Below are positions 11,887 through 18,410 of a stretch of 22,289 bases of DNA, in pieces (the first letter of the stretch is position 1; each line of letters begins with the position of its first letter). The position numbers and the translations under genes are program-made. The stretch is from a virus. The notes below the pieces were generated by a model. It saw only the letters and a list, made by a program, of their open reading frames with translations, was not told the origin of the DNA and searched no databases. The stretch is taken from positions 1 to 22,289 of IMG/VR virus record IMGVR_UViG_3300033996_001434. The stretch is one strand, 5' to 3'.

Positions 11887-13908
11887 ATGACAAACACTGT
11901 CAATGTAAACCTAGTCCAGCAAATTCAGGACGATTACCTTGCCTACTCGCTCAGTGTAATCGTGGGGCGAGCATTCCCCCGGTACACGGACGGGTGTAAG
12001 AGTATCTCTCGACGCATTGTAACAGCCATGAAGTGGCTCAACTTGAAGCCGGACGGTCGCTACATGAAGAGCGCTAGGGTAGAGGGGGAGGTTATGGGTA
12101 AATTGAGCCCCCACGGCGGAAGCTACAGCTCTATTGTCACTTTGGCTGCCCCATGGAATAATATGGCCCCGCTCGTAGACGGGCACGGGAATTGGGGGTC
12201 TTCGACAGACTCTGCGGCGTCGTCAAGGTACACTGAGTGCAAGCTCTCCCCTTTCGCCTGGGACTGCCTCCTCGACGACTCAGAAACCTGGGAGACGATG
12301 TCAAACTACGACGGTACGCTGCAGGAGCCAATCGAGTTGAACGCAAAGATCCCTTACGTTTTGCTCAATGGTCAAGAGGGCATTGGCGTGGGATACGCCT
12401 GTAAAATCGCCTCTCACAGTCTCCGTTCGATTGTTGAAGCAACCAAGCTGGTTTGCAAGGAAGCAACAACGTTTGAGGCACGCGCAGAGAACCTACGAAA
12501 AGCACGGGAGGTTCTCTCCCCTGACTTTCCAACTGGGACCCAGATTGTAAAAGACGATCAGTTGGAACAGTACTCACTAACAGGTATTGGCAGCATTCGC
12601 TGCATGGCGAAGGTTGAGATTGGTACCCAGACCCGTAGTGGAAAGGCAAAGGACCGTCCTTCCTTATCCTTTACGAACTTACCGCCAGGAACCAATCCTG
12701 AGAAAATCGGTGAGCAAGTGAAAAATGAGGTTGAGAAGGGAAGGATTGATGGTGTCGCTGAAGTCAATGACCTGTCCGATCTTACGGGGGACTGCGTTCA
12801 AATTGTGGCCAAGCCCGGTGTGAGCCCGGAAAAGCTAAGAGATCAACTTTACGCCTACACAGACCTTGATTCCAAGTTTTCAGCGAGAACCTTAGTTATC
12901 GACGGCACGAAGCCCGTAGAGCTCTCCCCGGTGGAAATTGTAGAGAAATGGGTGACATGGAGGTTGGGTAGATTACAAGTTAAATTCGAGAATGAGCTCA
13001 CTCATCGAGAGGCTCGCCTGGAAATTGTTCAGGGACTGCTCAAGGCCATTGACACGATGGACTTGATTATTAAGCGTATTCGTGCGGCAAAAGACAAGTC
13101 TGAGGCGAAAGTCGCTCTAACGACTGCACCTCTGAAGTTCTCGGATAAGCAAGCTGAGGCCATTCTAGACATGCGCTTGCGCCAGCTTACGAACCTTGAT
13201 CAAAACGATCTTATTGTCGAAGATAACTACCTTCAAGGCCGGATTCAAGAGCTGGTAGAGCTGTCCAGCGACGAAACCAGAGGGACTACCGCGAGACAAG
13301 TGTATATGCTCAATGAGCTGACCGAGATAGGAAAACGCCACGGAGAGGCTCGCCGAAGCCCCCTCATAGACCCCCCAACTGGCGGTGTGACCCGTGCTCC
13401 TGGGGAAAGCGTGAAGCGCCCTGCAGCCGCACCAAAGCCACGATTCCTGAAGATTGACTCGAAGAAGGGCACTGTTGAGCAGGTGAAAGGGCCACGTGGA
13501 GCTCTTGTCGTAGACCCCAAAGACAAGGTTATTCTTATGACTGAGGACGGGACACTGAAAAAGGTGTCAGCAACCTTCAAGGGAGTTATCTCAACAGCGT
13601 ACTCCGCTGTTTGCTTGGCGAAGAAGGAGTCCGACGTTTCCTCGAAAAAGTACCTAGTTGTGCTCGAACTCGACGGGCAGCTCAAGGCACTGACCCTGAG
13701 CGGAGAAGACCTTTGCAAGGTGACGAGTAAAGGCAAGAGATGGCTACCCGAAGGTTCCACACTGAGGCACTTTGGAGAGGGGGGTTTCACCCTGGACTGG
13801 GTTTCAACTCGAAAGAAGGCAATGAAACTCGACCTGTCAGTAAAGCTCGGGAAGCCGGGGGGCAAAGGAATTAAAGTCGCAAATATAGATGAGGTGAAAC
13901 TACCTTAG
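11887..13908 (+). CDS. Type IIA DNA topoisomerase subunit A (GyrA/ParC-like), 673 aa
   Basis: DYLAYSLSVIVGRAFPRYTD (16-35), then SRRIVTAMKWL, SPHGGSYSSIV (H76) and LVDGHGNWGS (97-106) match the breakage-reunion core. The catalytic Tyr is Y115 in SRYTE, with R114 before it as in GyrA R121/Y122. The coiled-coil/gate region runs to about 500. A C-terminal domain of about 170 residues (FLKIDSKKGTVEQVKGPRGA onward) ends with GKPGGKGIKV (655-664), which resembles the GyrA-box GGKG. Length lies between T4 gp52 (about 440) and ParC (about 750). The ATPase (GyrB-like) subunit is not in the window. It probably relieves supercoils during phage replication. Canonical QRRI and HPHG positions are partly altered (ISRRI, SPHG). 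Confidence 0.93.
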   Translation: MTNTVNVNLVQQIQDDYLAYSLSVIVGRAFPRYTDGCKSISRRIVTAMKWLNLKPDGRYMKSARVEGEVMGKLSPHGGSYSSIVTLAAPWNNMAPLVDGHGNWGSSTDSAASSRYTECKLSPFAWDCLLDDSETWETMSNYDGTLQEPIELNAKIPYVLLNGQEGIGVGYACKIASHSLRSIVEATKLVCKEATTFEARAENLRKAREVLSPDFPTGTQIVKDDQLEQYSLTGIGSIRCMAKVEIGTQTRSGKAKDRPSLSFTNLPPGTNPEKIGEQVKNEVEKGRIDGVAEVNDLSDLTGDCVQIVAKPGVSPEKLRDQLYAYTDLDSKFSARTLVIDGTKPVELSPVEIVEKWVTWRLGRLQVKFENELTHREARLEIVQGLLKAIDTMDLIIKRIRAAKDKSEAKVALTTAPLKFSDKQAEAILDMRLRQLTNLDQNDLIVEDNYLQGRIQELVELSSDETRGTTARQVYMLNELTEIGKRHGEARRSPLIDPPTGGVTRAPGESVKRPAAAPKPRFLKIDSKKGTVEQVKGPRGALVVDPKDKVILMTEDGTLKKVSATFKGVISTAYSAVCLAKKESDVSSKKYLVVLELDGQLKALTLSGEDLCKVTSKGKRWLPEGSTLRHFGEGGFTLDWVSTRKKAMKLDLSVKLGKPGGKGIKVANIDEVKLP

Positions 13909-13978: not shown

Positions 13979-13998
13979 CTTAATAGTTGAACAGAACC

Positions 13999-14544
13999 AT
14001 GACTGTAGTCTATCCGGTTTCCAGGTTACTTTCAAACCCCCGAATTTTCCTAGCTATCTCAAATCATTTGGGAGGAGTTCTAGATGCAGAGGTACTGAGA
14101 GACGTTTTTTACGAACTCCTGGAAGTAGAAATTAACGGGTCTCCTGACGAAGAATGTGAGTTTTCCGCAGAAGAGGCGTGCTTTGAAGTTGAGGAGGACG
14201 GGCTTGTTTACCATATCTACTTTGACACGGGTGCGTCGTTCAAACTCGAAGTTACAGAAGACGGTTTCCACCCTCAAATTTCCACCGAGTTTGAGTTGGC
14301 GACAGCATCTGCAGTGAACAACCGGCTCATCTCAGCAATCGAAGACTCCCACCCGGAGCTCAAAGACGATATTTCGTTCGAGCACCCCCCAACACCGGGA
14401 AACAGCTTCTTAAGTTCAAAAGACGGGGAAGGATTCTCCGGTAGTTTTCACCTTCGATCGGACCCCGACAAAAAGTTTTCCTTTACAATAACCTCAGTAG
14501 ACCCTGAGTCTGACCACTTAGAAGCCAAAATCAAACCCCTTTAA
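13999..14544 (+). CDS. Hypothetical acidic beta-rich protein (181 aa)
   Basis: ATG 13999 (MTVVYPVSRLLSNPRIF) is chosen over TTG 13987. It is strongly acidic. Beta-like segments are GLVYHIYFDTGASFKLEVTE and, near the end, FSGSFHLRSDPDKKFSFTIT. The first 45 residues are hydrophobic and helical (NHLGGVLDAEVLRDVFYELL). No motif is recognised. It sits between the topoisomerase and a coiled-coil protein upstream of the polymerase, so a replication-linked role is possible but unsupported. Confidence 0.6.
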   Translation: MTVVYPVSRLLSNPRIFLAISNHLGGVLDAEVLRDVFYELLEVEINGSPDEECEFSAEEACFEVEEDGLVYHIYFDTGASFKLEVTEDGFHPQISTEFELATASAVNNRLISAIEDSHPELKDDISFEHPPTPGNSFLSSKDGEGFSGSFHLRSDPDKKFSFTITSVDPESDHLEAKIKPL

Positions 14545-14556
14545 AGCGAAACACCC

Positions 14557-15423
14557 ATGATGGATAACATAGTGTTTGCAACCGATAGCATGAGGTCTTC
14601 GGTTTCTTCACTCAAGAAAAAAATATCAAATTTCAAGATCAGCATCGAACAACTCAGTTCGGAAGTAGAAAAAATTGATACAAAGTTTGACAAGCTTTTA
14701 ACACAAACTGAGATATACAAGGCTAAGCTAGAACGAGAAATGGGTCGCGAGGTGAGGCGTCTTGAGCTTGAACTTACCAAGCTTCGAAAACAAGTGAAAG
14801 AGTCACTCCCCCCTGAATCTCCTTTGGAGGACGAGACAGAGCTCGGAATAGCGTCAACACTTGCCATTATCGAGTGCCTTCTGAGGCATATCTGCGAAGG
14901 AGCAGACGACTTTAGGCTAATGAGCTACTCCTTCCTCTTCCCGGCTGTGATAGAAAGAGTTGCATCGTCTGACGACCCCGCGTACTTCATGGAAACTCTC
15001 CCAGAGTCTGCACAAGTTGTGATTGACCGGGGGAGGCAGTACGTTGCATACCTAAGAGGAGACTGCAAAACTCACGTCACAGATCCCGACGCATGGGAGC
15101 AATACATAGACCAAGTTACAGACTGGTGGAGGAACGACGCTCTTCCTTTGCTTTACGGGCAACGAGACGAACAATGGGACACAGACGTCCCGCTCTCTCT
15201 TGTTGAGATTCTAATGTGGCGTGACGAACCGGGTGAGCGACCCCTACACTTCTCACCGATTTTCGACGCCTACGAAACCTACAAGCTTCACAAAGACGCT
15301 GTTTACACAAGCAGCGGTGTTCGAGCTTTCGACCTAAAAATGCACAAATTCGACTCCGGAGCCCCCGAGGAAGAAGTGAAGCCCCCAGTCATTCTGACAC
15401 GACCTGTTTACAGGAAGCCTTAA
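14557..15423 (+). CDS. Coiled-coil hypothetical protein next to the polymerase (288 aa)
   Basis: Residues 12-82 form a long heptad-rich coiled coil (SSLKKKISNFKISIEQLSSE, then KIDTKFDKLLTQTEIYKAKL, then EVRRLELELTKLRKQVKESL). Residues 90-288 form a globular Trp- and Tyr-rich domain (ADDFRLMSYSFLFPAVIERV; QYIDQVTDWWRNDALPLLYG). Start ambiguity: ATG 14557 or ATG 14560. A perfect hairpin GGAAGC/GCTTCC spans its stop. The polymerase gene starts 57 bases downstream. I recognise no family; oligomerisation via the coiled coil is likely. Confidence 0.65.
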   Translation: MMDNIVFATDSMRSSVSSLKKKISNFKISIEQLSSEVEKIDTKFDKLLTQTEIYKAKLEREMGREVRRLELELTKLRKQVKESLPPESPLEDETELGIASTLAIIECLLRHICEGADDFRLMSYSFLFPAVIERVASSDDPAYFMETLPESAQVVIDRGRQYVAYLRGDCKTHVTDPDAWEQYIDQVTDWWRNDALPLLYGQRDEQWDTDVPLSLVEILMWRDEPGERPLHFSPIFDAYETYKLHKDAVYTSSGVRAFDLKMHKFDSGAPEEEVKPPVILTRPVYRKP

Positions 15424-15479: not shown

Positions 15480-18410
15480 ATGAGAACCAGCGAACTCGGC
15501 TACCCTGTCCTGTCTACCCCACTGCACACTAAGGTTTTCGGCAAACAAAAGGCAGCTTCAATGGGAGTTAAGGCACGTCAAAAGGCCGAGCGACTCTTAA
15601 AGCAATTTGGTATATCTGTCCCTGTTGATCACCCGGACAACCTGTACGATGGTCCCTTGCCCCTTCCAAGCTTAAGGGGTAGCAATTTACAGGAGCACTT
15701 TGAAAACATAGCAACAGAGCAGGTAGGGGTGTACAAAACCCTTGCGAATTCTCTAGCGGGGTGCAAACTCCCAAAACTCCCTGCAGTTTCCGACTTCGTC
15801 TATCAGGCGGGATGGACACGCTATGAGTTTGTAGACGGAAAGTTTCTTGTAGAGTCCGTACCATGCCCACTCGAAGAAGCTTTCACGTACGACACTGAAA
15901 CCTTCGTAAAAGCGGGTGCGTTTCCGATTATTGGGACGGCGCTAAGTGAAAAAGCAACCTACATTTGGCTCGCGGCAGAGCTTATTGACCCAACCATACC
16001 GGAGGAAGAGTGGGACCAACACGATCTCATTCCCATTGGTGAGAACAGGTTTGTAGCGGGACACAATATTAGCTACGACCGAGTGAGAACACGGGAAGGA
16101 TACTCACTTAGCCGTAACAAGCCTGAAAACTTCTACTTTGACACACTCTCCGCGCATATTGGAGTGTCGGGTTTGGCCTCAGGTCAACGGTGGTTGTACC
16201 TTCTTGCGGCGAAAGACCCCGAAAACCTGACTGAAGAGGAAAAGAGAAAACTCAGGTATGCTCCAAAGTGGCTAGACGAGGGATCAACAAACAGTTTGGT
16301 GCAATGCTACAACTTTCACGTTTACGAGGTTCGTAAGTACTTCGGCGATGACACTGTCCGCCCACTCAACCAAGGGGACAAAAAGGTACGGGACATTTTT
16401 GTAGACGCTACGCATATCTCGCAAATCACCGCAGTTCTTGAGAAGGCCGTAGAATACGCGGTAAGGGATGCTTTTTACACGGCGGAGCTTTTTCAGGCTT
16501 TGTGGCCGAAGTATCTCGATAGCACTCCCTCAATGGTGGGCCTTTGCGGCCACTACCACTTAAACGGCTCGGTCGTACCCCTGGTAGAAAACTGGGCTGA
16601 GTGGATTCAGAACACAGAAAGAGTGTTCCATGAGCACAGCCAGGAAATGACTGAGTTGTGCAGGGAGCTCGTATGGAAGACGTACAACGAGTGGAAGGCT
16701 GTCCTCAACAGCGTGGAGGACCCGGAGCGGGGCCTCGCGAAAGCACAGGAGTGGGCAGAGCAAGACCCTTGGGTGTCTCAGCTTAATTGGGAGCTTTGGA
16801 GTAGAAAAGGTAAGTACGCGTGGGTCCCTACTTGGGTGCAACCCTTTGTGAAAGATCCGCAACAACACATCGGAGTGAAGTCTCAATTGGCTCACTTGCT
16901 GTTGAAGCTCAAATACGAGGGATCACACATTGTTCAAACCAAAACAGAGGGCTGGTGCTACTACGATGAAACAGGTAGCCTTGTAAAAGTTCCCCACCCC
17001 AAAGGAACCGGGGATAATACCGGAGTGTTACTCAGCAAGGACTTTGTCCAAGATATGGAAACCGGGAGGCTAAGTAGCGATCTCCCTGAAGCTAAGAGAG
17101 CTCTGGAGATTTCAAACGCTATTTCTTACTGGACTTCTGTTCGTAAGCGGGTGATGGACCGGATCTTCCTCCGCGCTGAAAACCCGCATGGTTCATCCGC
17201 CCTGGTGACTCTTCCTGAGATTCTCTGCCACGGAACGGTAACTCGCAGAACAGTTGAAAGCTTGATGGCAACCATGTGCTCCACGAAAAACTGGAGAATT
17301 GGCACGGAGTTGAAAACACGAGTGCAGGCCCCCGAAGGCTGGAAAATTGTAAGCGCCGACTACGATGGTCAAGAGCTTCAGATCGCATCCATATACAGCG
17401 ATACTTGGGAAGGTGGCTTTGTCGGGTGCTCGCCGATGGGGTACAACGTCCTGTCTGGGTCCAAGGAAAACGGCACTGATCCTCACACCGCTCTTGCTCG
17501 TGCTATTCTCCCTGAGATGTATAAGGGGCTTGTGTGGGACAGGAAGCTAGGAATTTGTTACAGTCATGAGAGTGAACCGTTGAATGTACCAAATTGTGTA
17601 AAGGCTGGAGAAAAATGGTTAAGCCCAATTGAACCCCAGTTGTACAAACTCCTGGCGAAAGCCAGAGACCTGAGTAAGATTGTCGGTTTTGCAACCTTGT
17701 ACGGGGGGAGCGTAAGAGCCCTGAGCACTCCAATTCGACGAACTTTTCCTGAGAAAGGAGAGAGAGAAGTTAAGGATTTCGCACTGAAAGCACTGTCCTC
17801 GAAAAAAGGTGTTCTTGTGAATGGAGTGTATGAAGGTGGTTCTGACTCCGGCGCATTCAACTTGATGGAGCAAATATCCATGAAGACAAAGGTCCCTCAG
17901 CTACCCTGCCTTGGTACCAAAATTTCGACTGCAATGCGACCTGCGGCAGTTGGGACCGACTTTAGGACAGGACGCACAAACTGGGCCATCCAGGCATCGG
18001 GTGCCGAAATTCTATCCATAACGCTCACGGCTGTCGCGTGGCTAGCGGAAGAGTACAAAATTCCCTACCGCTTCATTATCAGCATTCATGATGAACTCCA
18101 CTTCATGACCCCTGAGAGGTACGCCACTCAGTTTGCCGTGCTGTTTCAAATTGCCCATCTTTATACCTGGGCGAATTTCCATAGCGCAATGGACATACCG
18201 GAGCTTCCACTGAGTCGTGCTTTCTTCTCCTCAGTAGCAATTGACTCTCGGATTCGTAAGTCCCCAAAAGAGTGCACGGTAACACCTTCAAACCCCCACG
18301 GTGCGAAAGAACCTAACGGAGTTGAGTACTCGATGACCGAACTCGGTGAGATTGGGGCTGTAGACAAGCTAAAGACACGATACGAAGCTATTCAAAAAGG
18401 ATTGATTTGA
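15480..18410 (+). CDS. Family-A DNA polymerase, mitochondrial Pol gamma-like (976 aa)
   Basis: A replicative polymerase with an active proofreading domain. Exo I is YDTET (D138, E140), Exo II GHNISYD (D200) then FDT (D221), and Exo III YAVRD (Y326, D330). RWLYLLAAK follows at 237-245. After a long spacer come GTVTRRTVES (585-594) and TELKTRVQAPEGWKIVSADY (609-628). Motif A is SADYDGQEL (D627), motif B R729-K733-F737-Y741-G742, and motif C SIHDE (D871). The end has AFFSSVAIDSRIRK then TPSNPHG. These match POLG (GHNVSFDRA, GTITRRAVE, GADVDSQEL, AFFSAVDID, TPSNP) better than Pol I or T7. It is shorter than human POLG (about 1239). It has a roughly 50-residue insertion at 676-727 between motifs A and B. 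F737 replaces the POLG Tyr951. Confidence 0.93.
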   Translation: MRTSELGYPVLSTPLHTKVFGKQKAASMGVKARQKAERLLKQFGISVPVDHPDNLYDGPLPLPSLRGSNLQEHFENIATEQVGVYKTLANSLAGCKLPKLPAVSDFVYQAGWTRYEFVDGKFLVESVPCPLEEAFTYDTETFVKAGAFPIIGTALSEKATYIWLAAELIDPTIPEEEWDQHDLIPIGENRFVAGHNISYDRVRTREGYSLSRNKPENFYFDTLSAHIGVSGLASGQRWLYLLAAKDPENLTEEEKRKLRYAPKWLDEGSTNSLVQCYNFHVYEVRKYFGDDTVRPLNQGDKKVRDIFVDATHISQITAVLEKAVEYAVRDAFYTAELFQALWPKYLDSTPSMVGLCGHYHLNGSVVPLVENWAEWIQNTERVFHEHSQEMTELCRELVWKTYNEWKAVLNSVEDPERGLAKAQEWAEQDPWVSQLNWELWSRKGKYAWVPTWVQPFVKDPQQHIGVKSQLAHLLLKLKYEGSHIVQTKTEGWCYYDETGSLVKVPHPKGTGDNTGVLLSKDFVQDMETGRLSSDLPEAKRALEISNAISYWTSVRKRVMDRIFLRAENPHGSSALVTLPEILCHGTVTRRTVESLMATMCSTKNWRIGTELKTRVQAPEGWKIVSADYDGQELQIASIYSDTWEGGFVGCSPMGYNVLSGSKENGTDPHTALARAILPEMYKGLVWDRKLGICYSHESEPLNVPNCVKAGEKWLSPIEPQLYKLLAKARDLSKIVGFATLYGGSVRALSTPIRRTFPEKGEREVKDFALKALSSKKGVLVNGVYEGGSDSGAFNLMEQISMKTKVPQLPCLGTKISTAMRPAAVGTDFRTGRTNWAIQASGAEILSITLTAVAWLAEEYKIPYRFIISIHDELHFMTPERYATQFAVLFQIAHLYTWANFHSAMDIPELPLSRAFFSSVAIDSRIRKSPKECTVTPSNPHGAKEPNGVEYSMTELGEIGAVDKLKTRYEAIQKGLI

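What the first reader, a model, noticed from the sequence alone, without database searches (positions are those of the whole stretch)
15480..18410. Phage-encoded DNA polymerase of the mitochondrial Pol gamma type
The 976-aa family-A polymerase carries motifs that, from memory of the human POLG sequence, are diagnostic of Pol gamma: GHNISYDR in the exonuclease, GTVTRRTVES, the motif A context SADYDGQEL, SIHDE, and the extreme C-terminal pair AFFSSVAID...TPSNP. Bacterial Pol I and T7 polymerase lack the last pair. A phage relative with an intact exonuclease bears directly on where the mitochondrial replicase came from. Seen in sequence: the motifs. Known: the family is classically mitochondrial. 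Inference: phage and mitochondrial enzymes share ancestry.
Basis: partly seen in the sequence, partly recalled or inferred. Interest (0 to 1): 0.88.

Follow-up and report, generated by a model that had tools for sequence, protein, structure and literature searches.

The report
Cyanophage DNA polymerase of mitochondrial type
A large virus, probably of photosynthetic bacteria, carries a DNA-copying enzyme of the same family as the one that copies human mitochondrial DNA; such viruses have been known since 2011, and this is a further member of an outer branch rather than the closest one to our own enzyme.

Summary
Window 15480-18410 (+) encodes an intact 976-aa polymerase of the Pol gamma subfamily: PF18136 (E 1.1e-61), human POLG (E 8e-99) against E. 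coli Pol I (E 0.007), a predicted fold whose best 35 PDB entries are all human, mouse or yeast Pol gamma (Z 27-42; next Pol I, 15.9), and all 14 active-site positions compared except one Phe-for-Tyr. A rooted tree separates it from T7/Pol I enzymes (100/100). The kind is known: cyanophages A-HIS1/2, S-TIM5, S-CBWM1 and Mic1 carry Pol gamma, and common ancestry with mitochondria is in print. The window is 99.8% identical to part of a 277-kb cyanophage-like contig where it is the only family A, B or C polymerase detected. Added here: 138 distinct phage Pol gammas; human and yeast Pol gamma group with Mic1-like phages (100/98), and grouping them with the window's clade is rejected (p 5e-6); no T7-type RNA polymerase or DnaB/gp4-type helicase domain in 14 Pol gamma phage records. 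If mitochondrial Pol gamma came from a phage, a Mic1-like donor fits better than the window's lineage or a T7-like package. The root, hence direction, is unresolved (p 0.087, 0.26).

The parts
15480..18410 (+). Pol gamma-type family-A DNA polymerase, 976 aa (P0001)
   Evidence: ORF and translation; PF18136 and PF00476; phrog_22619 E 1.8e-216; human POLG E 8e-99; fold Z 27-42 to Pol gamma
15660..16514 (+). 3'-5' exonuclease domain (aa 61-345), PF18136
15891..15899 (+). Exo I: D138 and E140
   Evidence: aligned with human D198, E200; invariant in 138 of 138 phage sequences
16062..16082 (+). Exo II: HNISYDR, D200 (the G of GHNISYDR is aa 194)
   Evidence: aligned with human D274; D in 138 of 138
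16467..16469 (+). Exo III: D330
   Evidence: aligned with human D399; D in 138 of 138
16809..16982 (+). Short spacer between exonuclease and polymerase (about 59 residues; 253 in human by residue numbering, 104 in yeast); borders approximate
17358..17360 (+). Polymerase motif A aspartate D627
   Evidence: aligned with human D890; D in 138 of 138
17664..17702 (+). Motif B R729...K733...F737...Y741; F737 where human has Y951
   Evidence: F in 86, Y in 52 of 138
18087..18095 (+). Motif C H870-D871-E872
   Evidence: H and D in 138 of 138; E in 88, S in 50
18219..18296 (+). Pol gamma C-terminal stretch with AFFSSVAID and TPSNP
   Evidence: aligned with human AFFSAVDID and TPSNP; patterns absent from T7 gp5, PolA and four other phage family-A enzymes
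11887..13908 (+). GyrA/ParC-type DNA topoisomerase subunit A, 673 aa, conserved neighbour
   Evidence: PF00521 E 3.3e-92; 47% identical to S-CBWM1 gp73 in the same order
13987..14544 (+). Conserved neighbour of unknown function
   Evidence: homologues between the GyrA-like gene and Pol gamma in S-CBWM1 (32%) and upstream of Pol gamma in L241 (37%)
14557..15423 (+). Conserved neighbour of unknown function
   Evidence: weak homologue directly upstream of Pol gamma in S-CBWM1 (22%, E 3e-13); in L241 (33%) two small ORFs lie between it and Pol gamma

Best explanation
It is the replicative DNA polymerase of a jumbo cyanophage, a true member of the Pol gamma subfamily of family A: an N-terminal 3'-5' proofreading exonuclease, a short spacer, a polymerase domain and the Pol gamma C-terminal stretch in one chain. 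It most likely copies the phage genome together with a phage primase with a DUF5906 domain (phrog_25243; its reading as an SF3-type primase-helicase is recalled), a 5'-3' exonuclease, a homologue of a gene annotated Pol III epsilon, and a GyrA-like topoisomerase encoded by the same phage. Shown: the sequence family, the predicted fold, intact active-site residues, the partner genes on the 277-kb contig, and that it is the only family A, B or C polymerase detected there. Inferred: enzymatic activity, the role as main replicase, and the cyanobacterial host. It lacks the long animal spacer that carries accessory-subunit contacts (recalled), so it probably works without a POLG2-like subunit; and it has Phe at the motif-B position where animal Pol gamma has Tyr, which predicts weak use of dideoxynucleotides (recalled rule from Pol I against T7).
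For: family; residues; 12 of 14 positions compared invariant in 138 of 138 distinct full-length phage sequences; model pLDDT 89.1; best 35 PDB entries all Pol gamma, Z 27.2-41.9 over 744-856 residues, then Pol I at Z 15.9; trees; window = contig G005 159476-181758 at 99.84%; psbA, primase, 5'-3' exonuclease, epsilon, GyrA, terminase, capsid and portal homologues on that contig; PF00476 once in each of G005, G006 and S-CBWM1, in G005 within the Pol gamma gene; PF00136 and PF07733 in 0 of 3, controls rang; primase = DUF5906, phrog_25243; 11, 16 (isolated cyanophage relatives).
Against: No activity has been measured. The host is inferred from psbA and from the isolates S-CBWM1, S-TIM5, A-HIS1 and Mic1; one relative contig was binned with a Microbacteriaceae genome (L241), which may be misbinning. 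No replicative helicase was identified apart from the primase reading, and the DUF5906 match of S-CBWM1's primase lies under Pfam's cut-off (25.2 against 27.6 bits; A-HIS1's is over it, 41.8). The primase gene of G005 is interrupted, so its product there depends on splicing that was not shown. G005 shows no exact end repeats and may be incomplete.
Confidence: 0.92

Rival explanations
1. Eukaryotic Pol gamma is the source and phages captured it from opisthokonts, so the phage enzymes say nothing on mitochondrial origins.
For: The root inside the Pol gamma family is not resolved: a tree with all phage Pol gammas as one clade and the eukaryotes outside is not rejected (p-AU 0.087; 0.258).
Against: Phage lineages are several and deep (window/S-CBWM1, S-TIM5, A-HIS+L394, L349, Mic1-like), while human and yeast form one lineage next to Mic1-like phages. 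Only two eukaryotes were sampled, so this is not decisive.
Confidence: 0.15
2. It is a T7-like or Pol I-like phage polymerase with a few convergent motifs.
For: All are family A; PF00476 also matches.
Against: E-values, a tree in which T7 gp5, four more phage enzymes and E. coli PolA form a separate clade at 100/100, fold ranking, C-terminal stretch.
Confidence: 0.01
3. The contig is eukaryotic contamination, or a nuclear POLG gene.
For: The closest solved structures are mitochondrial enzymes.
Against: A phage neck/tail-completion gene lies downstream (phrog_26); the window is colinear with a 277-kb contig that holds phage terminase, portal and capsid homologues, and shares gene order with S-CBWM1.
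Confidence: 0.01
4. It is a repair or recombination polymerase and the phage relies on the host's replicase.
For: The role is inferred only; a homologue of S-CBWM1 gp126 (annotated Pol III epsilon subunit) also lies on the 277-kb contig.
Against: No other family A, B or C polymerase was detected on G005, its 279-kb relative G006 or S-CBWM1, and primase and 5'-3' exonuclease genes are on the same genome. Use of the host polymerase is not excluded.
Confidence: 0.06

Closest known systems
Synechococcus phage S-CBWM1 gp77, 'DNA polymerase gamma' (MG450654)
   Same: 57% identity over the whole length; GyrA-like gene, two genes of unknown function, Pol gamma and then four further shared genes in the same order
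   Different: 139-kb genome against a 277-kb contig; shared replication and head proteins compared are about 41-62% identical
Cyanophages A-HIS1/A-HIS2, S-TIM5 group and Mic1 Pol gamma
   Same: Same subfamily; the compared active-site residues are conserved apart from motif B Phe/Tyr and motif C Glu (Ser in S-TIM5)
   Different: 30-34% identity to the window; separate deep lineages; Mic1 and S-TIM5 have Tyr at motif B, the window Phe; Mic1's gene is split by an insert
Human/mouse POLG (Pol gamma A) and yeast Mip1
   Same: Exonuclease plus polymerase plus C-terminal TPS stretch (human); same fold, Z 27-42
   Different: No animal-size spacer (59 against 253 residues), Phe for Tyr951, phage-encoded
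T7 gp5 and bacterial Pol I
   Same: Family-A polymerase core
   Different: Separate clade at 100/100; C-terminal stretch absent; E. coli Pol I only E 0.007 and T7 polymerase not listed up to E 1

Membership tests
DNA polymerase gamma subfamily (family A) | Pol gamma-type exonuclease domain PF18136 | tested here: met
   208.9 bits, cut-off 26.7, aa 61-345
DNA polymerase gamma subfamily (family A) | Exonuclease and polymerase catalytic residues intact | tested here: met
   D138, E140, D200, D330, R590, D627, R729, K733, Y741, Q838, H870, D871, E872 aligned with the same human residues; F737 stands for Y951; which residues are catalytic is recalled
DNA polymerase gamma subfamily (family A) | C-terminal stretch with the TPS motif | tested here: met
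   104 residues after HDE, TPSNP aligned with human TPSNP
DNA polymerase gamma subfamily (family A) | Clusters with Pol gamma and away from T7 and Pol I in a tree | tested here: met
   Outgroup split 100/100 (6 outgroup rows; 5 rows, without PolA)
DNA polymerase gamma subfamily (family A) | Pol gamma fold | tested here: met
   Predicted model only; best 35 PDB entries all Pol gamma, Z 27.2-41.9
Animal-type Pol gamma A (POLG) | Long spacer between exonuclease and polymerase that binds the accessory subunit (role recalled) | tested here: not met
   59 residues in the window, 58-98 in the 28 phage sequences of the alignment, 104 in yeast; 253 in human by numbering
Animal-type Pol gamma A (POLG) | Mitochondrial localisation | not testable with these tools
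   The gene is on a phage contig
[quoted passage not shown]
   Bench work needed
T7-like DNA polymerase (gp5) | Groups with T7 gp5 in a tree | tested here: not met
   T7 gp5 groups with four other phage enzymes and PolA, not with the window
Pol gamma + Twinkle + single-subunit RNA polymerase as one phage package | Single-subunit RNA polymerase PF00940 in the same genome | tested here: not met
   0 of 14 records (where no control rang); repeated on 9 of these 14 with T7 and P-SSP7 as positive controls: 0 of 9, controls 2 of 2. Of the 10 contigs four have a polymerase at least 97% identical to the window's, so they are not independent, and contigs may be fragments
Pol gamma + Twinkle + single-subunit RNA polymerase as one phage package | T7 gp4/Twinkle-type primase-helicase in the same genome | tested here: not met
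   PF03796 in 0 of 14 records, well-known bacterial genomes rang; T7 and P-SSP7 gp4 find each other by tblastn but nothing on the 277-kb contig. Contigs may be fragments, and PF03796 was not tried on T7

The most novel reading that the evidence does not exclude
Mitochondrial Pol gamma of animals and fungi was acquired from inside a cyanophage Pol gamma radiation: its sister group is the Mic1-like phages, and it came separately from Twinkle and the mitochondrial RNA polymerase, because Pol gamma phages pair it with a DUF5906 primase and show no T7-type RNA polymerase or helicase. The window's jumbo-phage lineage would be an outer branch that keeps a spacer-poor, possibly ancestral form.
Probability: 0.5. 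Interest if true: 0.7.

Novelty: new member of a known kind. Interest (0 to 1): 0.42.

Why it matters
The origin of the animal and fungal mitochondrial replicase is an open question with a phage answer already proposed in print. A larger phage set turns it into a tree problem: which phage lineage is the sister of animal and fungal Pol gamma, and did it bring its partners along. The window adds a jumbo-phage member of an outer branch; the wider set made here points to Mic1-like phages and to a replisome assembled from several sources. The natural Phe/Tyr difference at motif B also offers natural enzymes to compare for dideoxynucleotide use, the property behind the mitochondrial toxicity of some antiviral drugs (recalled).

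Tried and rejected
Rejected: T7-like, Pol I-like or contaminant readings. A bacterial Pol gamma: two pattern scans of the genome collection (84,980 species by its description) gave 38 candidate stretches with 0 confirmed and 49 with 1 confirmed; that one, L241, is a phage-like contig in a Microbacteriaceae bin with four genes in the window's order. Each scan used only two short peptide patterns, so this is weak evidence of absence. Plasmids: no match, with the Mic1 first piece as query. A GyrB partner for the GyrA-like gene: PF00204 in 0 of 5 records. A second replicase: PF00476 only once per record, PF00136 and PF07733 in 0 of 3 records.

Led nowhere: rooting the Pol gamma family. With outgroups the basal branches stay unresolved, and 'all phage Pol gammas one clade' is not rejected (p-AU 0.087 with 27 rows; 0.258 with 25 rows and 502 columns). 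Only two eukaryotes could be used, both opisthokonts. A first test of eukaryotes with A-HIS1/2 alone (p-AU 0.0009) was flawed, since it also split A-HIS from its sister L394; it was redone with L394 (p-AU 1e-5). Rfam found no known RNA at the Mic1, L323 or primase inserts at gathering thresholds. The Mic1 DNA helicase was not scanned (one search failed on its frame).

Rows dropped: from 361 ORFs over 800 aa, 138 distinct, 27 representatives at 75% identity were kept; fragments and split genes (among them L241, L398, L323-L325) were left out, except Mic1. Nine representatives were dropped, those nine plus L349, and E. coli PolA too.
Full report
What was checked first. Pfam assigns the mitochondrial polymerase exonuclease domain PF18136 at E 1.1e-61 and DNA_pol_A at 1.2e-9. 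Among PDB sequences human POLG scores E 8.4e-99 and yeast Mip1 2.3e-93, with E. coli Pol I at 0.007. PHROGs already holds a family for it, phrog_22619 (E 1.8e-216; the next DNA polymerase family, phrog_17, E 2.2e-18).

Anatomy. Aligned with human POLG (residue numbers from the 1239-residue chain; catalytic roles recalled), the window has D138, E140, D200 and D330 in the exonuclease, and R590, D627, R729, K733, Y741, Q838, H870, D871 and E872 in the polymerase, each the same letter as in human; F737 stands where human has Y951. Over 138 distinct full-length phage sequences, 12 of the 14 positions counted are invariant; the two that vary are the one of human Y951 (F in 86, Y in 52) and of E1136 (E in 88, S in 50). 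The spacer between the domains is 59 residues, against 104 in yeast and 253 in human by numbering. After HDE the window has 104 residues, while T7 gp5, PolA and four other phage enzymes have 45-49. An AlphaFold2 model from 24 sequences reached pLDDT 89.1 and pTM 0.87. Its best 35 PDB entries are all Pol gamma of human, mouse, human-mouse chimera or yeast, Z 41.9 to 27.2; the next are Pol I and Pol theta at Z 15.9 and below (at most 50 entries shown). In the viral library the best match is G0KYA6 (959 aa, E 1.7e-63, the length of A-HIS2's enzyme), far ahead of ordinary phage family-A enzymes.

The genome it belongs to. The window matches contig G005 of IMG/VR (277,244 bp) at 99.84% over 22,283 bases; a relative with a 68% identical polymerase lies on a 279,339-bp contig. 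No exact end repeats of 30-100 bases were seen in G005, so it may be incomplete. G005 carries psbA 76% identical to that of Prochlorococcus phage P-SSP7, and homologues of S-CBWM1 terminase, portal, capsid, 5'-3' exonuclease, primase, epsilon, sigma factors and ribonucleotide reductase, and 49 tRNA genes plus a tmRNA-like gene. I read this as a jumbo cyanophage; the host is inferred.

What is already known. tblastn over 50,697 phage records finds 11 records, all named as phages of cyanobacteria: S-CBWM1 (56.8%, two records), S-TIM5 (two records) and three relatives (34%), A-HIS1 (two records) and A-HIS2 (30%), Mic1 (30%); five of the 11 are annotated DNA polymerase gamma. The Mic1 paper (PMC7156551; passages and section 15 read) lists these phages, credits the first to Chan et al. 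2011, and proposes a common ancestor with mitochondrial Pol gamma from an unrooted neighbour-joining tree; it also notes the Tyr of motif B in Mic1 and S-TIM5. A 2014 paper (PMC3914683; [quoted passage not shown] Chan et al. 2011 itself is not held. So the window is a new member of a known kind. My nine searches in the paper library (listings only, apart from the papers named) showed no paper that singles out Mic1-like phages as sister to opisthokont Pol gamma; the library lacks most subscription journals.

How large the family is. Eight scans of viral contigs, with the isolates, gave loci that hold 361 Pol gamma ORFs over 800 aa, 138 of them distinct, in 27 groups at 75% identity. Overlapping loci of one contig are counted in the 361. 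Two lineages were not close to any isolate: L349 (29% at most) and L394 (34% to A-HIS2).

Where the mitochondrial enzyme attaches. Human and yeast Pol gamma group with Mic1 (from then on also with its relative L322) apart from all other phages in the set: 100/99 (26 rows, 872 columns), 100/98 (30 rows, 879 columns), 96/90 with six outgroups, 96/99 on columns filled in the outgroup. Exonuclease and polymerase halves agree, 100/99 each, though the halves differ weakly on where the S-TIM5 clade goes. On the 30-row set, holding the two eukaryotes with the window clade (16 rows), with the S-TIM5 clade (6) or with A-HIS plus L394 (3) is rejected (p-AU 5e-6, 7e-18, 1e-5). These groups were named after seeing the tree, which the test does not allow for in full. 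L322, whose gene is uninterrupted, is 38.7% identical to yeast Mip1 (611 bits) but 30.7% to the window (417 bits) and 32.8% to A-HIS2 (454 bits). Against a firm reading: several branches are long, the letter make-up of the two eukaryotes is unlike the rest, only two eukaryotes were available, and the root is open (p-AU 0.087; 0.258). If the root lies on the eukaryote branch, eukaryotes are merely the sister of all phage Pol gammas.

Replisome partners. PF00940, the single-subunit RNA polymerase, is in 0 of 14 Pol gamma phage records (no control rang); on 9 of these repeated with controls it is 0 of 9, while T7 and P-SSP7 both match. PF03796 is in 0 of 14 (well-known bacterial genomes rang, T7 was not among them). 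Ten of the 14 are IMG/VR contigs, four of them with a polymerase at least 97% identical to the window's, so they are not ten independent phages. T7 and P-SSP7 gp1 and gp4 find each other by tblastn but nothing on G005 or on the S-CBWM1 stretches searched, which leave out bases 45,001-54,999 of that record; of A-HIS1, Mic1, L319, L323 and L349 only 9-14 kb each was searched there. The same call shows the limit of that method: T7 gp5 did not find the Pol gamma genes either. Instead A-HIS1, S-CBWM1 and G005 share a primase of phrog_25243 (for the first two, for G005) with a DUF5906 domain (A-HIS1 over Pfam's cut-off, S-CBWM1 under it), and L349 has a related protein two genes upstream of its polymerase. 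DUF5906 as an SF3-type helicase is recalled. Whether Mic1-like phages have this primase was not settled.

Only polymerase. On G005, G006 and S-CBWM1 PF00476 rings once each (in G005 inside the Pol gamma gene), and the family B and C polymerase domains PF00136 and PF07733 ring in 0 of 3, with controls ringing.

Mechanism proposed. The enzyme extends primers made by the phage primase and proofreads with its own exonuclease; the 5'-3' exonuclease would remove primers and the GyrA-like topoisomerase would relieve twist. These steps are inference from gene content. Without the long spacer the enzyme probably needs no POLG2-like subunit; how it stays on DNA is unknown. Phe737 predicts discrimination against dideoxynucleotides (recalled from Pol I F762 and T7 Y526).

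Verdict. Observation confirmed, interpretation partly supported, novelty low for the window, moderate for the phylogenetic refinement that came out of it.

Noticed in passing
L322, L343 (IMG/VR contigs 3300044611_002191, 3300044970_002871); L323-L325: Mic1-like Pol gamma. L322 and L343 have an uninterrupted gene; L323-L325 are split at the same point as Mic1 (after ADVDS) by about 900 bp; in L323 this holds an ORF that looks like a homing endonuclease (by eye), as if a mobile insert comes and goes.
   Followed up: partly
L349 5551-8010 (contig 3300033515_000021): A deep Pol gamma lineage (820 aa from the likely start, at most 29% identical to others) with Tyr at motif B and a primase-like protein two genes upstream; it keeps the C-terminal TPS.
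   Followed up: partly
G005 191794-194750 (L311 11794-14750): Five group I introns (RF00028) within 3 kb around the major capsid gene of the window's phage.
   Followed up: no
G005 247941-248856 (L314): The primase gene is interrupted by about 0.9 kb that reads like a GIY-YIG endonuclease ORF by eye; Rfam gave no match there at gathering threshold.
   Followed up: partly
G005 145799-147214 and 147617-148996; S-CBWM1 gp8: Two ORFs related to S-CBWM1 gp8, which is annotated SNF2 DNA repair protein but matches the TET/JBP oxygenase domain (E 4e-18): possible DNA base modification.
   Followed up: no
S-TIM5 lineage (L028, L127, L126, L109, L112, L218 groups): Motif C reads HDS instead of HDE in 50 of 138 phage Pol gammas; S-TIM5 is one, and the number equals the size of the S-TIM5 groups.
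   Followed up: no
window 11887-13908: GyrA-like topoisomerase subunit; no GyrB domain (PF00204) was found in any of the 5 related records searched.
   Followed up: partly
L241 (Microbacteriaceae MAG contig CALGUV010000157.1): Phage-like contig with four genes in the window's order inside a bacterial genome bin; prophage or misbinning.
   Followed up: partly
G005 whole contig: 49 tRNA genes and a tmRNA-like gene on the window's phage contig.
   Followed up: no
L398 4650-8160 (contig 3300033571_013339): Another Pol gamma gene split in two pieces of 502 and 430 aa.
   Followed up: no
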